From positions 5,582,501-5,646,500 of the forward strand of contig JAQPZY010001625.1 of the NCBI GenBank assembly GCA_029931535.1: DNA of 64,000 nt, given 5' to 3'. The position numbers and the translations under genes were made by a program. This DNA is from Margaritifera margaritifera. Lineage: Eukaryota > Mollusca > Bivalvia > Unionida > Margaritiferidae. The notes under the pieces were generated by a model. It had not been told where the DNA came from. It saw only the letters and a program-made list of their open reading frames with translations, and made no database searches. Numbering within the stretch: the stretch's first letter is position 1; every line of letters starts with the position of its first letter. Shown piece by piece: positions 21,108-36,141 of this stretch.

Positions 21108-21524
21108 TCATCAACTAAAATATCGAATTAAAGGTTTAAAGATCACTATGAACTATGCAAACATTTTGTTTTGGATAATATCTCTTGATGTGCTTTCCTT
21201 TCCAGCTTGTGCCAGTAAAACATAGGAATTATCAAACTCACATAAAACTGAAATCATTTGATGAATATGCTGGTACATGTTTATGTTCGATCCATATATA
21301 TGCTGATGTTTTATGTCTTTTACGAATGTGCAGACCATCAATACAGCTTTTCGACCAATGAAATAAATTGGTTATTCATATCTTCCAACATAAATTTGTT
21401 ACCAGATTTAACAGCATTAATACCAGCGAATAAGGAAATAGCAACGACATTTAACAGAACTGATTAAACAGTTAATACAGGGAAATATTTCTGCATAATT
21501 TCTGTGTTTAATGGCAACAACTCA
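20901..21524. other. Intergenic sequence with a (TTA)n microsatellite
   Basis: A (TTA)n run lies at 21076-21107. Nothing else is recognised. Confidence 0.6.
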
Positions 21525-22112
21525 TATTTTTAATTTAGTTGAAGGATAAACGCTAATTGTAGTTGAAGGATAAACACTTATTGTAGTTGAAGGATAAACA
21601 CTAATTGTAGTTGAATGATAAACACTAATTGAAGTTGAAGGATAAACACTTATTGTAGTTGAAGGATAAACACTTACTGTAGTTAAAGGATAAACACTAA
21701 TTGTAGTTGAAGGATAAACACTAATTGTAGTTGAAGGATAAACTCTAATTGTAGTTGAAGGATAAACACTAATTATAGTTGAAGGATAAAACCTTATTGT
21801 AGTTGAAGGATAAACAGTAATTGTAGTTGAAGAATAAACACTAATTGTAGTTGAAGGATAAACACTTATTGTTGTTGAAGGATAAACAGTAATTGTAGTT
21901 GAAGAATAAACACTAATTGTAGTTGAAGGATAAAACCTTATTGTAGTTGAAGGATAAACAGTAATTGTAGTTGAAGAATAAACACTAATTGTAGTTGAAG
22001 GATAAACACTTATTGTTGTTGAAGGATAAACATTAATTGTAGTTGAAGGATAAACACTTATTTTTATATATAAGATAAAGCTCAACGGCAGAAATACTGT
22101 CAAAAGCATCAA
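21522..22112 (-). CDS. Possible secreted repeat protein (YPSTTISV octapeptides), doubtful
   Basis: A 196-codon minus-strand frame opens at TTG, immediately followed by ATG (22109), with a signal-peptide-like start ([16 protein letters not shown]), then about 22 copies of an octapeptide like YPSTTISV and a stop. Ser, Thr, Tyr and Pro dominate, which resembles mucin-like or adhesive secreted proteins. A 24-bp repeat without stops stays open automatically, so the frame alone is weak evidence. The in-frame hydrophobic leader outside the array is the only independent support. No promoter or poly(A) site was identified. Confidence 0.2.
21525..22066. repeat. 24-bp minisatellite, about 22 units
   Basis: The unit is GTTGAAGGATAAACACTAAT plus TGTA, with single-base variants (aataaac, cagtaat, accttat). 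Groups of three or four units repeat as blocks: the run of variants at 21790-21860 recurs at 21870-21940 and again at 21950-22010, showing higher-order amplification of about 72-96 bp. On the minus strand it stays open as an eight-residue repeat. Confidence 0.9.
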
Positions 22113-23948: not shown

Positions 23949-23952
23949 ATAT

Positions 23953-24674
23953 TGTTACGACTCTATGGTCTAAGAAAAATGTAACAGAAAGAAAGTGAAA
24001 CCAACAAATCAAGTAAAAATCAACAAGCAATTTATTACTAGATAATTAAAATGAAAAATAAAAAAGTCACTTACAGTAATGTGTTTTGAAATCCTAATAA
24101 TCCAATAAGAATGATTGTTCTAATCACAAGTCCTAAATATAGAATGTTCCGAATTCACGGCTGTGTCCTTGAATGTTATGATGTGCTAATGGTCTCCAAA
24201 GTCCTGATGTACTAGTAATCTTGATGTGCTGATGTCAAAATGAAGTATTCCAAAATCATCAATTAAAAATCCAAAATCCAAAAGTTTATGAGCACTGTTA
24301 TAATCCAATGAATATTTAAAATAATTCCTCTCTTAGAATTTGGAATGAATTTTCACAACTGTAATAGCTCTTTACAAGACTGATGGTAATGTCAAAACTG
24401 AATAAATGTCCACCAAACATGGCATATATAAAGATTGGTCACATGACAGAATGTTCTAGAATATGAGTCATCTTAATGGAATTTTTACTTGTAAACAAAA
24501 ATCAACCTTGACCTTCAAATTGAGAAAACATATTGATCAAAACAACCTAATTCAAGGCCACTAGTTAAACATGTTTTTCCTGATAAACATTAGGATTTAA
24601 GCAAATATTAAAGTGAAGAAACATTTATAATTTCCCAAAATATTTATAATATTATATAAACATCATACATAACA
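23953..24674 (-). repeat. 3' LTR of the Gmr1-like element (722 bp)
   Basis: Starts TGTTATGTATG and ends GTCGTAACA in element orientation. It has a 17-bp segment (near 24149-24165, with the phrase ccgaattcacggctg) that the other LTR lacks. It contains a TATA-like TTTATATATGCC (near 24424-24435, complement) and an AATAAA signal close to its 3' end (near 24030-24036, complement), both in the expected U3/R layout. Confidence 0.95.
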
Positions 24675-24683
24675 CCTCCCCTC
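24675..24683 (-). promoter_or_regulatory. Polypurine tract
   Basis: GAGGGGAGG in element orientation lies directly against the start of the 3' LTR. It is the expected RNase H-resistant primer for plus-strand DNA synthesis. Confidence 0.85.
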
Positions 24684-24812
24684 ATAAAGAAAAAGAAAAA
24701 TTTATATAATAAAGCTTTCTTTTGAATATACATCTAATACTATAATAACCAAAATTACATAAGAACATGTTTTATGATACTGGACTTAATTACATCAAGC
24801 AATATTACATTT

Positions 24813-25700
24813 CTAGGCATGTGAGAGTGCATCTGGAATCACATTGTCTTTTCTCCTGATGTGTTTGATGTCAATGTTATATTCTTGCAATATCAAACTC
24901 CATCTCAACAATCTCCGATTTTTATCTTTCATTTTGTTGATGAAAGTAAGGGGATTGTGATCACTGTACACAATAATTGGAGAAAGAGCTGAGGTAACAT
25001 ACACTTCAAAATGCTGTAAAGCCAATATCAAAGCCAAACATTCCTTCTCAATTGTGGAATAATTTTTCTGATGCTTGTTTAGTTTTCTAGAAAAATAACA
25101 CACAGGGTGATCCACACCACTTTTGTCTTCCTGAATCAATACTCCACCAACCCCTACATCACTTGCATCAACAGATAATTTAAATGATTGGATGAAATAT
25201 GGTGCAGAAAGAACTGGTGCATTCTTAAGCATGGCCTTTAACTTGTCAAAAGATTCCTGACACTTGTCAGACCAATGAAATTTGGTTTTCTTACTCAATA
25301 AACTTGTCAAAGGTTCAGCAATTTTGGAAAAATTGGAACAAAATTTCCGATAATATCCAGCCATACCTAGAAATCGCATCAGTTGCTTTTTACAAATTGG
25401 AACTTGAAATTCAGAGATAGCTTTGACCTTAGCTTCTATAGGTTTAACTTGACCTTGTCCCACAATATGTCCTAAAAATGTGACACAAGCATGGCAAAAC
25501 TCACTTTTGCTCAAATTAATTGTCAGATTCGCATCACTGAGTCGATCGAAGAATTTTCGAATGGTTTCCAAATGATCTTCCCAGGTGTTGTTGTAGATAA
25601 TGACGTCATCGATATAAGCGTCACAATTATCAAGACCAAATGTTATCATGTTCATCAGACGTTGAAACGTTGCAGGCGAATTTTTCATTCCAAACGGCAT
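24813..25700 (-). CDS. Gmr1-like pol, 3' part: RT palm/thumb and RNase H
   Basis: This 295-codon frame begins at the conserved MPFGMKNSPATFQ block of gypsy RT, the direct continuation of the upstream frame. The RT catalytic box YIDDVII is intact at about residues 29-35, followed by the thumb (FLGHIVGQG, FLGMAGYYRKF). RNase H follows with its acidic residues: Asp in LSVDASDVGVGG (about 172), Glu in IEKECLALILAL (about 218) and Asp in VYSDHNPL (about 245). It ends RKDNVIPDALSHA, a standard gypsy RNase H C-terminus, and the stop lies about 130 bp before the polypurine tract. No integrase follows, unlike ordinary Ty3/gypsy. A one-base deletion near 25713-25716 separates it from the upstream frame. 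The Met at 25700 is therefore an artefact of the break, not a true start. Confidence 0.9.
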   Translation of the reverse strand: MPFGMKNSPATFQRLMNMITFGLDNCDAYIDDVIIYNNTWEDHLETIRKFFDRLSDANLTINLSKSEFCHACVTFLGHIVGQGQVKPIEAKVKAISEFQVPICKKQLMRFLGMAGYYRKFCSNFSKIAEPLTSLLSKKTKFHWSDKCQESFDKLKAMLKNAPVLSAPYFIQSFKLSVDASDVGVGGVLIQEDKSGVDHPVCYFSRKLNKHQKNYSTIEKECLALILALQHFEVYVTSALSPIIVYSDHNPLTFINKMKDKNRRLLRWSLILQEYNIDIKHIRRKDNVIPDALSHA

Positions 25701-27442
25701 GACTTTATATTGATAAGTCCATCTGGAGTAACAAATGTTGAAATTTCTTTTGCCCTTTCCGTCAGTGGAATTTGCCAGAATCCTTTTAAAAGGTCAAACT
25801 TGGTGACATATTCCGCATTTCCAATTTTATCAATGCAATCGTCCATTCTTGGGATTGGAAATGAATCCGTTTTGGTGACACTGTTGACTTTTCTATAGTC
25901 AGTACACATACGGAATGTATTATCTGGCTTGGGAACAAGAATACATGGTGAACTCCAGTTACTTTTACTTGGTTCTATGAAATCATTCTCCAGTAGATAC
26001 TGAATTTCTTTCTTCAGATAGTTCTGTTTGAGAGGATTCATCCTATAAGGATGCTGTTTCACAGGCGCAGAATCTACAATGTCAACGTCATGATAAATTT
26101 TACTTGTTCGTGTTGGAACATCAGGAAACAAGTGCTCATAGTCATGTAATAGCTGTTTTAGTTCATTTCTTTCCTGTTGTTGTAGATGTGAAAGTTTCTG
26201 GTCTAGGTTGTTCAATATTTCTGAATTCCGAAGATTGGTTATACCAGAGTCACTATAGTCTGATTGTATTCCATCGTTGATATCTTCACTGTGTGGGACA
26301 GGTACAACTAAATTAACTGAATAATTAGCTGGGCTATCTCTGTCAAAATATTCCTTTAACATATTTATATGACAAAGTTGTTTCTGTTTCCGTCTCCCAG
26401 GAGTGTTAATGATATAATTTAAGTCATTTACTTTCTTTTCAACGGTATAAGGACCATAAAATTTAGCCTGAAGAGGATTCTGAGGTATGGGAAAGAGAGC
26501 CAGAACTTTGTCACCAGATTTAAAACTCCTTTCCTGTGTATTTCTGTCATACCTTAATTTCATTTTTGACTGGGTATTGTGAAGATTAGTTCTTGCTACT
26601 TCACAGGCCTTTGACAACTTGTATTTGAAATCAGAGACATAATCAAGAAGATTAATCTTCGAATCTTCATTTGAAAGAAGTTTCTCTTTCAATAATTTCA
26701 ATGGTCCACGGACAGTATGACCAAAAACTAGTTCAAAGGGACTAAAACCCAACGACTCTTGAACTGATTCCCTAACAGCAAACAACAACAAATGAACACC
26801 CTCATCCCAATCCTTTTCTGTATCAAAGCAATTTGATCGAATCATATTCTTCAAAGTTTGATGAAATCTTTCCAAAGCACCTTGACTTTCAGGGTGATAG
26901 GCAGAAGATTTAAACTGTTGGATGCCTAATTCATGCATAACTTGTTGGAAAATTCCAGACATAAAATTTGACCCTTGATCTGACTGGACAGATTTGGGAA
27001 GGCCAACAAGTGTAAAAAACTTCACCAAAGCTTTCACAATAGTTTTAGTTTTTATATTTCTCAGAGGAATTGCCTCTGGAAATCTTGTAGATGTACACAT
27101 GATGGTCAACAAGTATTGGTTGCCTGACTTGGTTTTAGGTAAAGGACCAACACAGTCTACCATTATTCTACTAAATGGTTCATCAAATGCAGGAATAGGT
27201 TGCAGATGAGCCTTAGGTATCTTCTGATTGGGTTTTCCTACCATTTGACAAGTGTGACAAGATCTGCAGTATTTAGAAACATCACTTTTGAGTTTCGGCC
27301 AATAAAAATGATTCAAGATCCTGTGATAAGTCTTATGGACTCCTAAATGACCAGCCAAAGGAGTTTCATGGTCTAAATTAAGAATTTCCTGTCGATATGA
27401 CTTAGGAACAACAATTTGATAGCTAATTTGATAGCTGACCAC
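25685..27442 (-). CDS. Gmr1-like pol, 5' part: integrase then N-terminal RT
   Basis: 585 codons, apparent GTG start after a frame break. The integrase zinc-binding domain has HLGVH (His32, His36) and CRSC (Cys59, Cys62). The catalytic core has Asp96 (MVDCVGP), Asp155 (QSDQGSNF) and Glu191 (GALERFH), the canonical D,D(35)E spacing, all intact. A C-terminal GPYTVEKK...LCHINMLKEYF segment (about 322-360) ends integrase. RT begins near residue 430 with YRMNP, then FIEPSKSNWSSPCILVPK, MCTDYRKVN and KFDLLKGFWQIPL; its sequence becomes out of frame near 25717 and ends 585 residues in. The order integrase-RT within one frame is the diagnostic feature. It overlaps the gag-pro frame by 20 nt in a different phase. 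Confidence 0.92.
   Translation of the reverse strand: MVSYQISYQIVVPKSYRQEILNLDHETPLAGHLGVHKTYHRILNHFYWPKLKSDVSKYCRSCHTCQMVGKPNQKIPKAHLQPIPAFDEPFSRIMVDCVGPLPKTKSGNQYLLTIMCTSTRFPEAIPLRNIKTKTIVKALVKFFTLVGLPKSVQSDQGSNFMSGIFQQVMHELGIQQFKSSAYHPESQGALERFHQTLKNMIRSNCFDTEKDWDEGVHLLLFAVRESVQESLGFSPFELVFGHTVRGPLKLLKEKLLSNEDSKINLLDYVSDFKYKLSKACEVARTNLHNTQSKMKLRYDRNTQERSFKSGDKVLALFPIPQNPLQAKFYGPYTVEKKVNDLNYIINTPGRRKQKQLCHINMLKEYFDRDSPANYSVNLVVPVPHSEDINDGIQSDYSDSGITNLRNSEILNNLDQKLSHLQQQERNELKQLLHDYEHLFPDVPTRTSKIYHDVDIVDSAPVKQHPYRMNPLKQNYLKKEIQYLLENDFIEPSKSNWSSPCILVPKPDNTFRMCTDYRKVNSVTKTDSFPIPRMDDCIDKIGNAEYVTKFDLLKGFWQIPLTERAKEISTFVTPDGLINIKSCRLE
27413..27436. repeat. 12-bp tandem duplication at the gag-pro/integrase junction
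   Basis: AATTTGATAGCT occurs twice in a row (27413-27424 and 27425-27436) exactly where the gag-pro frame ends and the integrase frame starts. It is frame-neutral itself. Just upstream, the conserved junction sequence (WRPPDVPADDEW) is readable only in a third frame, so at least two single-base changes flank it. Confidence 0.7.
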
Positions 27443-29633
27443 TCGTCATCAGCAGGTACATCAGGTGGTCTCCATTTCTCATAAGGACCCCATTTTTCAC
27501 AAAGTAACACACTGGAACTTGTGTGGCTTCATTTTCACTAATAGCCCTCTGAAACAAACAAGATATCTCGGGATCTTGCTCCTGTTCAACGACAAGGGAT
27601 TGTCGTTTGTCATCCTGATTAGAACAAAGAGAATGAGTTGCCAAAAGAGGATCACTGTAATCAATACCATTTGATTGATCAATACCTGAGGAAAAAGTGA
27701 CCTCATCAAAAGACTGACCAATACATGTGTCAGCTAAAGGAATAATATCCTGATCAACATCACTCTCAAGAGCTCTTTTTGCCATAGCTCTAGTAACTGC
27801 ACAAGCAGGGTACAAATCAGGGATTTCAGTTTCGACAGGATCAACTTTCTGATCCAAACAAGGCTTGTCAGTTACAAGTGGATTAACCACAACCTTATCT
27901 CCAGCTAGGTCATTGCCTAGTAATAAATGAACACCCTCTATGGGTAAAGAAGTCACTGCCCCAACAGTCACAGGTCCAGAAACTAAGTCTGATGCCAAAT
28001 TTACACAATGAAGAGGAACATTTACAAAGCCGCACTCTACTCCCTGAACAAGAACACTTTCACTTGAAGAAGACTCCTTAGACAAAGGCAAAGTACCTGA
28101 TAATAAAAGACTCTGAGAAGCTCCAGTGTCCCTTAATATTTTAATTGGGATAGGCTTGGCAGAATCACCAATAAGTGATATAGAACCTTCTGACATGAAT
28201 GGTTCATAAGCCTCTAAAATAGAATCAGACTGGGATTTGTTTGACCCAACAAATGTATTGCTTTCAATACAAGACCGTGACCTTGACCTCGTAGAAATAA
28301 GAGCATTTGGAAAAGCTCTGTCTTTTCTCTGTTGCTTATTTTTCAACTTGAAGCAATCAGAAATAACGTGCCCTTTCTTTTTACAATAAGTGCACGTAGG
28401 AAGAGATAAGGATTTCTGATCAGTCTTATCAGATGTTTGATTCCTAACAGTTGTGCTGTTGTGAAATTTGGAAGTACTCGAATGAGATTGAAATGGTTTT
28501 TTACCAGAAAACTGCTGAGAGGACGACTTATTGCCAAATGAAATTTTGTTCGTCAAGGAATAGTCATCAGCCATACGAGCAGCATTTTCCAAAGTTTCCA
28601 CATTCCGCTCGTCAAGATAGGTTTTAACATCACTATGGATACACCTCTTGAACTCTTCAATTAATACGAGCTGTCTGAGGTTATCATAAGCTTGATCAAC
28701 TTTCTTGGCTGAGCACCACCTATCAAATAGTTGTTCTTTATCCCTTGCAAATTCGACATGAGTTTGTCCAGTTTCTTTTCTACAATTCCTAAACCTTTGT
28801 CGATATGCCTCTGGTACCAACTCATAAGCTTTCAAGATGTACTCCTTAACCACATCATAATCAGTGCTTTGTTGTACTGACAGTGAAGTGTAGACTTCAC
28901 GAGCTTTGCCAATAAGTACACTTTGTAATAACAAAGTCCAATGCTCTCTGGGCCATTTCAAGTTTTCAGCTATTTTCTCGAAATGAAGAAAGTATTTATC
29001 TACTTCTTTTTCCTGAAAAGGGGGTACTAACCTAATATATCTAGTAACATCAAAACCTGGACTTGTGTTTAAAGGAGTGGAGTGTGCTCTGTTTGCCAGT
29101 TCTAATTCTCTTAATTTAAATTGCATTTCCCTTTCTTCTCTTTGCATCTGCATTTGTATTTGCCTCTCTTCTTTCTCTCTCTCCATCTGTATTAGCCTCT
29201 CTTCCTTCTGCATTTGTATCTGCCTCTCTTCCTTCTGCATTTGTAGCTGCCTCTCTTCTTTCTCTCTCTCCATCTGTATCTGCCTCTCTTCTTTCTCTCT
29301 CTCCATCTGTATCTGCCTCTCTTCTTTCTCTCTCTCTCTCTGAATCTGAAGCTTTGCCAATTCTAAATCCATCTGGTTCTTTAATTCTAATTCCCTTAAT
29401 TTCCTGTCAGAACCAGATACAGGCTTTCTTTTCAAACTTAAAGCACTATTTTCAAAAATTCCCTTTCCTACTAAATATTGAATTAAAATGATCTTTATTT
29501 CCTGTTTTGTCAATGTTACTGTTGCCTCAGATAGACTGTATTTTCTGGCAAGCTCGAGCAACTCATCCTTTCTCATGCATTCTAACCCCTCCTGGGTAGG
29601 TTTTGAAATGAAATTCTGAACATTAGATGCCAT
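27423..29633 (-). CDS. Gmr1-like Gag with SCAN-like domain, zinc knuckle and protease
   Basis: 736 codons from ATG at 29633 (A at -3). Residues 15-60 look like a SAP-type helical start (MRKDELLELARKYSL). Residues 84-180 are a Glu/Lys/Arg/Gln-rich coiled coil made of EREKEERQIQM repeats. The capsid region starts at about 195 (YIRLVPPFQEKEVDKYFLHF), and residues 270-357 (EAYRQRFRNCRK to ARMADDYSL) have the helix pattern of the vertebrate SCAN domain. One CCHC knuckle, CTYCKKKGHVISDC, lies near 413. A retropepsin-like active site, ILRDTGASQSLLLSG, lies near 496-511. The C-terminal part leads into the integrase leader (VCYFVKNGVLMR) before the frame is lost. It packages element RNA and processes the polyprotein. 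It is longer than most gypsy Gags because protease is fused in. Confidence 0.9.
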   Translation of the reverse strand: MASNVQNFISKPTQEGLECMRKDELLELARKYSLSEATVTLTKQEIKIILIQYLVGKGIFENSALSLKRKPVSGSDRKLRELELKNQMDLELAKLQIQREREKEERQIQMEREKEERQIQMEREKEERQLQMQKEERQIQMQKEERLIQMEREKEERQIQMQMQREEREMQFKLRELELANRAHSTPLNTSPGFDVTRYIRLVPPFQEKEVDKYFLHFEKIAENLKWPREHWTLLLQSVLIGKAREVYTSLSVQQSTDYDVVKEYILKAYELVPEAYRQRFRNCRKETGQTHVEFARDKEQLFDRWCSAKKVDQAYDNLRQLVLIEEFKRCIHSDVKTYLDERNVETLENAARMADDYSLTNKISFGNKSSSQQFSGKKPFQSHSSTSKFHNSTTVRNQTSDKTDQKSLSLPTCTYCKKKGHVISDCFKLKNKQQRKDRAFPNALISTRSRSRSCIESNTFVGSNKSQSDSILEAYEPFMSEGSISLIGDSAKPIPIKILRDTGASQSLLLSGTLPLSKESSSSESVLVQGVECGFVNVPLHCVNLASDLVSGPVTVGAVTSLPIEGVHLLLGNDLAGDKVVVNPLVTDKPCLDQKVDPVETEIPDLYPACAVTRAMAKRALESDVDQDIIPLADTCIGQSFDEVTFSSGIDQSNGIDYSDPLLATHSLCSNQDDKRQSLVVEQEQDPEISCLFQRAISENEATQVPVCYFVKNGVLMRNGDHLMYLLMTSGQLSN
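29130..29343. repeat. Internal minisatellite in gag coding the coiled coil
   Basis: Imperfect 27-33 bp units of the form 'ctgcctctcttctttctctctctccatctg' (plus strand) encode EREKEERQIQM-type repeats. Unit lengths stay multiples of three, so frame is kept, which suggests length variation was tolerated while gag was under selection. Confidence 0.8.
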
Positions 29634-29801
29634 TGTAAATGCTTGTTGGTTTCACACACAAAAAAAATTTCTCTACTAAAAATCTTTGCCAAAGACAAAA
29701 AAAAATTCCAAGACAAAATCAATATGAATTTCAAAGATAAATTTAATATCTCTAATATGCTTTAAAGAAATTCAGATCCCGGAAGACGAGCCCCCAATTT
29801 C
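29634..29801 (-). promoter_or_regulatory. 5' leader with tRNA-Pro-like primer-binding site
   Basis: Five bases after the 5' LTR (element orientation) comes TGGGGGCTCGT, perfectly complementary to the 3' end of tRNA-Pro. It is followed by CTTCCGGGATC. The complement to tRNA-Pro therefore resumes after a 3-nt insertion (CTT) between the acceptor-stem and T-stem parts. The rest of the leader up to the gag ATG is A/T-rich. Confidence 0.7.
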
Positions 29802-30506
29802 TGTTACGACTCTATGGTCTAAGAAAAATGTAACAGAAAGAAAGTGAAACCAACAAATCAAGTAAAAATCAACAAGCAATTTATTACTAGATAATTAAAA
29901 TGAAAAATCAAAAAGTCACTTACAGTAATGTGTTTTGAAATCCTAATAATCCAATAAGAATGATTGTTCTAATCACAAGTCCTAAATATAGAATGTGTCC
30001 TTGAATGTTATGATGTGCAAATGGTCTCCTAAGTCGGGATGTACTAGTAATCTTGATGTGCTGATGTCAAAATGAAGTATTCCAAAATCATCAATTAAAA
30101 ATCCAAAATCCAAAAGTTTATGAGCACTGTTATAATCCAATGAATATTTAAAATAATTCCTCTCTTAGAATTTGGAATGAATTTTCACAACTGTAATAGC
30201 TCTTTACAAGACTGATGGTAATGTCAAAACTGAATAAATGTCCACCAAACATGGCATATATAAAGATTGGTCACATGACAGAATGTTCTAGAATATGAGT
30301 CATCTTAATGGAATTTTTACTTGTAAACAAAAATCAACCTTGACCTTCAAATTGAGAAAACATATTGATCAAAACAACCTAATTCAAGGACACTAGTTAA
30401 ACATGTTTTTCCTGATAAACATTAAGATTTAAGCAAATATTAAAGTGAAGAAACATTTATAATTTCCCAAAATATTTATAATATTATATAAACATCATAC
30501 ATAACA
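29802..30506 (-). repeat. 5' LTR of the Gmr1-like element (705 bp)
   Basis: Same termini and internal motifs as the 3' LTR. Visible differences are about seven substitutions plus the missing 17-bp segment, roughly 1% divergence. It drives transcription leftwards from a TATA-like TTTATATATGCC (about 30248-30262, complement). Confidence 0.95.
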
Positions 30507-30510
30507 ATAT

Positions 30511-34722: not shown

Positions 34723-35055
34723 ATGAACTGTGCACATGAATCCTTTCTAACCGAGCACCCTTCATCTTACAGACTGATCAACTGTGCACATGAGTCCTTT
34801 GTAACTGAACACTCTTCATCTTGCAGACTGATCAATTGTGCACATGAGTCCTTTGTAACTGAACACTCTTCATCTTGCAGACTGATCAACTGTGCACATG
34901 AATCCTTTCTAACTGAACACTCTTCATCTTGCAGACTGATCAATTGTGAACATGAGTCCTTTGTAACTGAACACTCTTCATCTTGCAGACTGATCAATTG
35001 TGCACATGAGTCCTTTGTAACTGAACACTCTTCATCTTGCAGACTGATCAACTGT
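34723..35055. repeat. 54-bp minisatellite, about six units, open on both strands
   Basis: The unit is AACTGTGCACATGAGTCCTT then TGTAACTGAACACTCTTCAT then CTTGCAGACTGATC. Because 54 is a multiple of three, 18-residue repeats are open on the plus strand (132 codons, 34723-35121) and the minus strand (94 codons). The array is absent from the right arm of the inverted repeat, so it expanded or inserted after the arms formed. I do not regard either frame as a gene. Confidence 0.85.
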
Positions 35056-35077
35056 CACATCATCCCAAATCAAGACC

Positions 35078-35215
35078 AATTAGAGGTATTTTATTGGTTT
35101 GTTAATTTGAAGACCAATTAGAGGTATTTTATTGGTTTGTTAATTTGAAGACCAATTAGAGGTATTTCATTGGTTTGTTAATTTGAAGATCAATTAGAGG
35201 CATCTTATTGGTTCG
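35078..35215. repeat. 38-bp tandem repeat, about four units
   Basis: The unit is AAGACCAATTAGAGGTATTT then TATTGGTTTGTTAATTTG. Counterparts with different spacers lie at 43690-43905 in the right arm. Confidence 0.85.
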
Positions 35216-35451: not shown

Positions 35452-35680
35452 GCCGTTATTCACGAAACTCCTAAATTTGAGTGCACACTCAATCTAAAAT
35501 TTTGTTAGTTTACAATATATAAATTAATTGAAATACAAGACATTTCAAAGTAGCAATACATTTAGATACAAATGTATGTTAAATATCAATAGTTTATTTT
35601 GTAACTACATAGCAAACATAAGGCAAAGGTAATGATAAGCGGGGGTGAGCAATCAAATTTAGGAGTTTCGTGAATACTGG
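35452..35680. mobile_element. ~229-bp MITE
   Basis: The left end TTATTCACGAAACTCCTAAA mirrors the right end TTTAGGAGTTTCGTGAATAC, giving terminal inverted repeats of about 30 bp. The right arm of the large inverted repeat retains only one end (43437 onwards), as if the other half was deleted. LINE coding sequence starts almost immediately to the right. Confidence 0.7.
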
Positions 35681-35684
35681 TCCT

Positions 35685-36141
35685 GCGAATCCGAACCCTT
35701 CAAATATTACAATGGATACTTTTGAAATATGCTTTAAAGCTGTAAACAATTCTAATGACCACTTTTTTATACCAGATGAAGATGTTTTACACTGTAATGA
35801 AAGATATGTAAAAGGAAAGTTTAATGTCATGTTTAATGAACTAAATAAATATATTTCCTTTCAAGAGGTAGAAAAGACTTTCCATCAAATAAAATTAGGC
35901 CGCAGTGCTGGCCCAGATACGATTACTAATGAGTTTCTTAACCATGGTAAAGATATACTTTTAAATACATTCTGTAATTTATTTTGTGCTGTATTTCAAA
36001 GTGGTCACTTTCCAGAAATGTGGTCCCAAGGTCAAGTTATACCATTGCATAAAAAGGCAATTTAGATGATGTTAATAATTATAGAGGTATAACGCTTCTT
36101 AGTTGCATATGTAAATTATTCGCACGTATATTTAATAATAG
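35685..36141 (+). pseudogene. LINE reverse transcriptase, 5' part (before solo LTR)
   Basis: The plus-strand frame runs to a stop at 36065 and then on in shifted frames. It contains the RT N-terminal blocks: ISFQEVEKTFHQIKLGRSAG then PDTITNEFLNHG, then FQSGHFPEMWSQGQVIPLHK and NNYRGITLLSCICKLFARIF. The endonuclease is missing, so the copy is 5'-truncated. It stops at 36141, where a solo LTR begins, and resumes at 36964. Confidence 0.8.

What the first reader, a model, noticed from the sequence alone, without database searches (positions are those of the whole stretch)
24675..29801. Ty3/gypsy-type element with integrase upstream of reverse transcriptase in an apparently molluscan genome
The minus-strand order is gag-protease, integrase (intact D96, D155, E191), RT (YIDD box), RNase H, then the polypurine tract and LTR, with nothing after RNase H. 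Integrase and RT start share one 585-codon frame, so the order cannot come from nested insertions. This is the Gmr1-like arrangement, originally reported from deuterostomes; its presence with paired LTRs and a related solo LTR suggests at least two families here. How widely Gmr1-like elements are already catalogued in molluscs I cannot check.
Basis: partly seen in the sequence, partly recalled or inferred. Interest (0 to 1): 0.88.

Follow-up and report, generated by a model that had tools for sequence, protein, structure and literature searches.

The report
Abundant Gmr1-like integrase-first retrotransposon family
This is a recently inserted but broken copy of a jumping gene whose integrase sits, unusually for its class, before its copying enzyme; thousands of sister sites share the genome, including hundreds that lost most of their capsid gene and probably ride on the others.

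Summary
The core observation holds. Window 23953-30506 (minus strand) is an LTR retrotransposon ordered gag-protease, integrase, RT, RNase H, PPT, LTR. The copy is dead: the frame breaks between gag-pro and integrase and inside RT. It fits Gmr1-like Ty3/gypsy elements: Ty3-type integrase and RT, integrase first, SCAN-like capsid, and integrase 65-73% identical to integrase-first elements of named echinoderms and hemichordates. No Gmr1 reference sequence was available, so the decisive tree is missing. Two named bivalve proteins of this build already exist, so occurrence in molluscs is not new as data. The claimed solo LTR was not found. In the window's own 2.45-Gb assembly, 20 of 20 fetched sister copies have the same order. 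Pattern counts: 3,421 LTR/PBS junctions, 5,311 intact capsid-edge sites, and 631 sites with one ~0.9-kb gag deletion that removes most of the capsid. Four deleted copies read in full have their own target duplications and near-identical LTRs, so the deleted form probably spread on capsids of full copies (inferred). Shared-LTR arrays and an unusually variable PBS were also seen. New member of a known kind, with a parasitic derivative worth follow-up.

The parts
23949..23952 (.). target-site duplication ATAT, left
   Evidence: matches 30507-30510
23953..24674 (-). 3' LTR (722 bp, TGTTA...TAACA)
   Evidence: alignment with 29802-30506: 17 gap columns, 7 substitutions
24675..24683 (-). polypurine tract (sense GAGGGGAGG) against the 3' LTR
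   Evidence: sequence; the same or a one-base variant in the sister copies with two LTRs
24813..25700 (-). ORF: end of RT (YIDD) and RNase H; no further domain found after RNase H
25685..27442 (-). 585-aa ORF: integrase (aa 8-376; D96, D155, E191) followed by the start of RT (from aa 447)
25685..25700 (-). frame change inside RT: this copy is broken here
   Evidence: the two RT parts in frames 3 and 2 here, in one frame in 20 of 20 fetched sister copies
27423..27442 (-). frame change between gag-protease and integrase: second lesion
   Evidence: frames 2 and 3 here; one frame in 17 of 20 sister copies; single proteins of 1500-1700 aa among relatives
27423..29633 (-). 736-aa gag-protease ORF with coiled-coil repeats, capsid, CCHC knuckle and DTGA protease motif
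   Evidence: motifs seen by eye in the translation
28548..28814 (-). SCAN-like capsid part (aa 274-362)
   Evidence: Pfam PF02023, E 2.6e-12, 46.8 bits against cut-off 27
29776..29796 (-). primer binding site TGGGGGCTCGTC-TTC-CGGGAT, complementary to the 3' end of tRNA-Pro apart from a 3-nt insert
   Evidence: tRNA-Pro(UGG) genes with that 3' end in the same assembly
29802..30506 (-). 5' LTR (705 bp)
30507..30510 (.). target-site duplication ATAT, right

Best explanation
A recently inserted, now frame-broken copy of a high-copy Gmr1-like Ty3/gypsy LTR retrotransposon family. Shown: anatomy, order, LTRs, target duplication, thousands of sister sites. Inferred from the family: RNA made from the 5' LTR gives one gag-pro-IN-RT-RNase H polyprotein; Gag with a SCAN-like capsid packs the RNA; tRNA-Pro primes minus-strand synthesis at the PBS and the PPT primes plus-strand synthesis; integrase inserts the DNA with a 4-bp target duplication. 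The integrase-first order belongs to the whole group of relatives seen, not to an accident in this copy. A large derivative group lost most of the capsid by one deletion and probably moves on capsids supplied by full copies (inferred).
For: Domains and order. LTR pair and target duplication. 20 of 20 fetched sister copies in the same order, 19 of 20 with both LTRs in the stretch; LTR K2P 0-0.0134 in 18 of 19 pairs and 0.075 in one. 2 of 20 carry one frame from capsid to the end of RNase H. 3,421 exact LTR/PBS junctions, 5,311 intact capsid-edge sites and 631 deletion-junction sites; reversed-pattern controls 0 in all three. 229 of 229 collected relatives with both domains are IN-first. SCAN in Gag. 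tRNA-Pro genes match the PBS.
Against: The 20 sister copies were picked by RT score (20 of the 33 places of the 477-bp match class among the 150 scored), so they are biased to well-preserved RT of this kind and could not have shown an integrase-last family. The 347 relatives were found with integrase-first queries, so 229 of 229 is biased too. No conventional-order element from the same genome was compared. No expression data.
Confidence: 0.92

Rival explanations
1. An integrase-first Ty3/gypsy lineage that gained this order independently of Gmr1 (convergence), for example one of the mollusc MolGy clades.
For: The 2018 mollusc survey found 21 Gypsy clades and did not list Gmr1 among the six known ones (PMC6238403, section 6 read); its tree used RT/RNase H, not gene order. 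No Gmr1 reference sequence could be compared here.
Against: The SCAN-like capsid is tied in print to Gmr1-like elements; relatives in named echinoderms and hemichordates share the order and have integrase 65-73% and RT start 66-72% identical.
Confidence: 0.07
2. Nested insertion or rearrangement of two ordinary elements at this locus.
For: None beyond the unusual order.
Against: IN and RT start share one frame; paired LTRs and a target duplication; same order in 20 of 20 sister copies at other sites.
Confidence: 0.01
3. For the 631 deletion-junction sites: they are mainly not a mobile derivative but segmental or tandem duplications of a few deleted copies.
For: Of the first 100 listed junction places, 23 lie in 7 arrays with 4.96-5.00-kb spacing, which shows amplification without transposition.
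Against: The four copies read in full sit at different sites with four different 4-bp target duplications and LTR K2P 0, 0.0040, 0.0094 and 0.0041, which shows transposition after the deletion; the other 77 listed places are not in arrays. Flanks of those 77 were not read.
Confidence: 0.15

Closest known systems
Gmr1-like (Gmr1 clade) Ty3/gypsy elements; fish 'Gmr1-Gmr4' of Tetraodontiformes (PMC11117352, passages and table rows read)
   Same: Integrase upstream of RT is stated for the Gmr1 clade (PMC6238403 and PMC3587641, passages). The fish forms have one gag-pol of 1506-1634 aa and 6.1-6.5 kb in all; here relatives of 1500-1700 aa and an element of 6.55 kb. SCAN-like capsid.
   Different: LTRs longer here (705-836 bp in the copies against 337-518 bp); host apparently not a fish; the passages seen do not state the domain order of the fish elements; no direct sequence comparison was possible.
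Unnamed-function proteins of Pinctada imbricata (P0254) and Pecten maximus (P0302)
   Same: SCAN, IN, RT and RNase H in one protein, IN first; IN 69-72%, RT start 66-70% identical
   Different: Different families of the same kind; named only hypothetical protein, reverse transcriptase or uncharacterized protein.
Ty3 of yeast (PDB 7q5b)
   Same: Same domain types; alignable IN and RT
   Different: RT before integrase in Ty3.
BARE2, gag-less parasite of barley BARE1 (PMC3735527, passages read)
   Same: A conserved deletion removes Gag function, the rest is kept, and its RNA is found in virus-like particles
   Different: BARE2 is Ty1/copia and loses the gag start codon; here the start is kept and the capsid core is removed in frame; packaging here is inferred, not shown.

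Membership tests
Gmr1-like Ty3/gypsy | Ty3/gypsy-type integrase and RT/RNase H | tested here: met
   Pfam H2C2, rve, p58_C, RVT_1, RT_RNaseH; best solved-structure match Ty3
Gmr1-like Ty3/gypsy | integrase upstream of RT | tested here: met
   window and 20 of 20 fetched sister copies; 229 of 229 collected relatives with both domains
Gmr1-like Ty3/gypsy | capsid related to the SCAN domain | tested here: met
   E 2.6e-12; PF02023 precomputed for the 120 gag relatives listed of 2,153 hits, by my reading
Gmr1-like Ty3/gypsy | single gag-pol frame (as in the fish forms) | tested here: met
   not in the window copy (two lesions); 2 of 20 sister copies run unbroken from capsid to the end of RNase H; relatives of 1500-1700 aa
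Gmr1-like Ty3/gypsy | RT/RNase H/IN tree groups it with Gmr1 references | tested here: inconclusive
   integrase tree of 46 rows with relatives from named deuterostomes, bivalves and MAGs, but no Gmr1, fish or tunicate reference, Ty3 as a saturated outgroup, and no RT tree made
BARE2-type gag-less parasite (the 631-site derivative) | one conserved gag lesion shared by many dispersed copies | tested here: met
   identical breakpoint in 4 of 4; 631 sites
BARE2-type gag-less parasite (the 631-site derivative) | RNA packaged in particles of the full element | not testable with these tools
   needs particle RNA

The most novel reading that the evidence does not exclude
The genome carries a capsid-less parasite of a Gmr1-like element: one ~0.9-kb in-frame deletion removed the coiled coil, the capsid N-part and most of the SCAN-like part but kept the end of gag, protease and pol; it reached up to 631 sites by using capsids of full copies, and the deletion has moved between LTR and pol backgrounds by recombination with full copies (co-packaging). 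I found no such derivative described for Gmr1-like elements; the searches on this were (8 of 217 papers listed; no paper), with the Gmr1 searches, all in open-licence papers only.
Probability: 0.5. Interest if true: 0.6.

Novelty: new member of a known kind. Interest (0 to 1): 0.45.

Why it matters
It extends a lineage first described from deuterostomes, and the source of the vertebrate SCAN domain, to a very abundant, recently active family in an apparently bivalve genome, where the 2018 mollusc survey listed no Gmr1 clade. The capsid-deleted derivative, if mobile in trans, is a natural test of which Gag parts can be supplied by another copy. The shared-LTR arrays and the variable PBS offer material on how such elements recombine and reverse-transcribe.

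Tried and rejected
Nested insertion: rejected (one frame, a target duplication, same order in sister copies). Related solo LTR in the window: not found. A gag match to solved structures by sequence: none at E 0.01. Viral-contig scan for relatives: no pattern match. Scan of prokaryote genome contigs: 29 stretches matched a pattern, 2 were relatives, both in one Heimdallarchaeota MAG, read as animal contamination. Selection on pol of the deleted form: pN/pS 0.48 (4 deleted copies, 15 segment comparisons) against 0.42 in full copies (241 comparisons), no clear difference; L025 and L028 were left out and the integrase segment dropped out of all fetched copies by my length filter, so this rests on RT and RNase H segments. 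Monophyly of the 4 deleted copies: AU p 0.185 on pol (not rejected), 0.032 on the 3' LTR (weakly rejected; the group was named before the trees); L025 and L028 were dropped before these trees. Whole-genome copy search by protein and by LTR DNA: not completed. Pfam on three other window ORFs: nothing at its cut-off.
Full report
WHAT IS THERE. The element lies on the minus strand at 23953-30506. Direct repeats of 722 and 705 bp flank a 5,127-bp interior; they differ by one 17-bp indel and 7 substitutions. Both sides carry ATAT, a 4-bp target duplication. From 5' to 3' in the sense direction: 5' LTR, a PBS 5 nt inside it, a 736-aa gag-protease ORF, a 585-aa ORF with integrase then the first part of RT, a 295-aa ORF with the rest of RT and RNase H, a polypurine tract and the 3' LTR. 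D96, D155, E191 and the YIDD box are present. Against Ty3 the two domains appear in swapped order.

THE COPY IS BROKEN. The frame changes between gag-protease and integrase and again in RT. Both look like lesions and not programmed shifts: the RT change is in 0 of 20 fetched sister copies, gag and integrase share a frame in 17 of 20 by my reading, 2 of 20 have one frame from capsid to the end of RNase H, and single proteins of 1500-1700 aa are common among the 120 listed hits.

SISTER COPIES. The window lies in contig C527 of a 2.45-Gb assembly of 1,696 contigs. An RVT_1 search there scored 150 of 43,450 candidates; 33 of the 150 places are of a short, 477-bp match class. I fetched 20 of these 33 with flanks. 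All 20 have gag-IN-RT-RNase H in this order, 19 with both LTRs in the stretch (L025 shows the 3' one only). Two further places read only in an earlier fetch (L014, L015) also have integrase first. By eye, 18 of 19 LTR pairs have matching 4-bp target duplications (L033 with a small change at the LTR end); L028 does not match. LTR K2P is 0-0.0134 in 18 of 19 pairs and 0.075 in L028; two pairs are identical. I give no dates in years because no rate is known here. The family was recently active (inference).

COPY NUMBER. The LTR-end plus PBS pattern has 3,421 exact matches, an intact capsid-edge pattern with up to 2 mismatches has 5,311, and the deletion junction described below, with up to 2 mismatches, has 631; the reversed-pattern controls are 0 in all three. 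These count short sites, not complete elements, and the patterns differ in strictness.

MEMBERSHIP. The Gag has a SCAN-like segment (E 2.6e-12), and PF02023 is precomputed for the 120 gag relatives listed of 2,153. The SCAN domain is stated to derive from Gag of a Gmr1-like element (PMC3424704, passages read; the primary paper, PMC3209298, is not held). A profile search returns proteins named from Glandiceps, Ptychodera, Amphiura, Apostichopus, Holothuria, Lytechinus, Pinctada and Pecten. Against the window, integrase is 65-73% and RT start 66-72% identical in the echinoderm and hemichordate ones, with lower values in the second half of RT and in RNase H. Of 347 proteins collected in three searches, 229 hold both IN and RT and in all 229 IN comes first. 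The collection is biased: the queries were integrase-first and only the best 120 of 2,090, 2,153 and 2,982 hits are listed. An integrase tree of 46 rows places the window beside an unnamed NCBI protein at 87% identity and, in a wider set of 19 rows (SH-aLRT 97), with two proteins from Thiodiazotropha MAGs; the named bivalve and deuterostome rows fall outside that set. No cod, fish or tunicate Gmr1 reference was available, so the key tree is missing.

LITERATURE. Crustacean elements were described as the first Gmr1-like ones in protostomes (PMC3587641, passages); an annelid family LGF3 falls in Gmr1 (PMC8220671, passages); the annelid survey lists Gmr1 among clades present in several phyla and says it was not found in its own analysis (PMC8556966, passages). 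The mollusc survey (PMC6238403, section 6 and passages) describes the Gmr1 order in its background but does not list Gmr1 among the clades found. My searches for Gmr1 with mollusc or bivalve listed no paper that, from its title, abstract start or the passages I read, reports it in molluscs; the library holds open-licence papers only, and one of the 21 papers was not listed. Two named bivalve proteins of this kind are in public databases, so presence in molluscs is at most unreported, not new as data.

THE CAPSID-DELETED FORM. Four of the 20 copies (L020, L021, L026, L036) have an interior about 0.9 kb shorter. The breakpoints are at the same alignment columns in all four, and the gag start is joined in frame to the last part of the SCAN-like segment. 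The coiled coil, the capsid N-part and most of SCAN are gone; the end of gag, protease and pol remain, with frame breaks of their own in places. The four have different target duplications and LTR K2P of 0, 0.0040, 0.0094 and 0.0041, so they transposed after the deletion arose. Genome-wide 631 sites carry the junction against 5,311 with the intact edge, about one in nine. A Gag without capsid should not build particles (inference), so capsids of full copies are the likely vehicle, as for BARE2 in barley (PMC3735527, passages). The four do not group together in the pol or LTR trees; in the LTR tree L020 falls with two full copies (SH-aLRT 99). Holding the four together is not rejected on pol (AU p 0.185) and weakly rejected on the LTR (p 0.032). 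That suggests recombination between deleted and full genomes; it is not proof.

ARRAYS. Of the first 100 places listed, 22 lie in 7 head-to-tail arrays with 4.97-5.95-kb spacing, which is about one LTR plus one interior; the deletion junction shows the same in 23 of its first 100 (7 arrays, 4.96-5.00 kb). The listed places are the first contigs by number, not a random draw. One array read directly (L043) is interior-LTR-interior-LTR, its units 99.7% identical over 3.9 kb. Unequal recombination between LTRs is the simplest account (inference).

PBS. The recalled tRNA-Pro 3' end has 6 matches in the assembly; 4 became loci and 3 of these 4 are tRNA-Pro(UGG) genes by ARAGORN. The first 12 nt, TGGGGGCTCGTC, match the CCA end, acceptor strand and next base in 11 of 20 copies compared (19 fetched, L025 not among them, plus the window). 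What follows varies: 2 of 20 copies have the exact 18-nt complement, and there are 17 variants among 20. The PBS is the most variable 24-column window of a 473-column alignment of 19 copies (L025 and L028 left out; 0.22 against a median of 0.039), although homopolymer runs in the leader come close. In the first 100 genome-wide places I count 13 spacer forms and 20 exact complements by eye; that pattern fixes the first 12 nt. Subfamily inheritance and errors at strand transfer both remain open.

HOST. Not established. Relatives in two named bivalves and the nearer ones in MAGs of Thiodiazotropha (lucinid clam symbionts, recalled) make a bivalve likely.

Noticed in passing
own assembly, e.g. C42:193829-223123, C197:469321-494220; L043:1-9901: Head-to-tail arrays of the element sharing LTRs, both full and capsid-deleted forms (22 of 100 and 23 of 100 listed places).
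   Followed up: partly
29776-29796 and the same place in L017-L036: The PBS beyond the acceptor-stem complement is hypervariable, with inserts of several lengths.
   Followed up: partly
L041, L042 (NJBF01000101.1, NJBF01000089.1): A Heimdallarchaeota MAG contains Gmr1-like elements of animal type; Thiodiazotropha MAG and Campylobacter records (P0269, P0272, P0289) do too. Read as contamination by animal DNA.
   Followed up: partly
P0214 (950 aa): A relative with capsid and RT-RNase H but no integrase between them: possibly an integrase-deleted derivative in another genome.
   Followed up: no
P0121 (1245 aa): A gag relative with two SCAN stretches, possibly a duplicated gag.
   Followed up: no
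L044 (C1478, four RT places about 7.3 kb apart): An array with a longer unit whose integrase match is split by about 1.3 kb.
   Followed up: no
21522-22112 and 34723-35121: Tandem-repeat ORFs (YPSTTISV and NCAHESF-type repeats), most likely minisatellites that happen to be open.
   Followed up: no
35670-36065: ORF that by eye resembles part of a LINE-type protein; no Pfam family at its cut-off.
   Followed up: no
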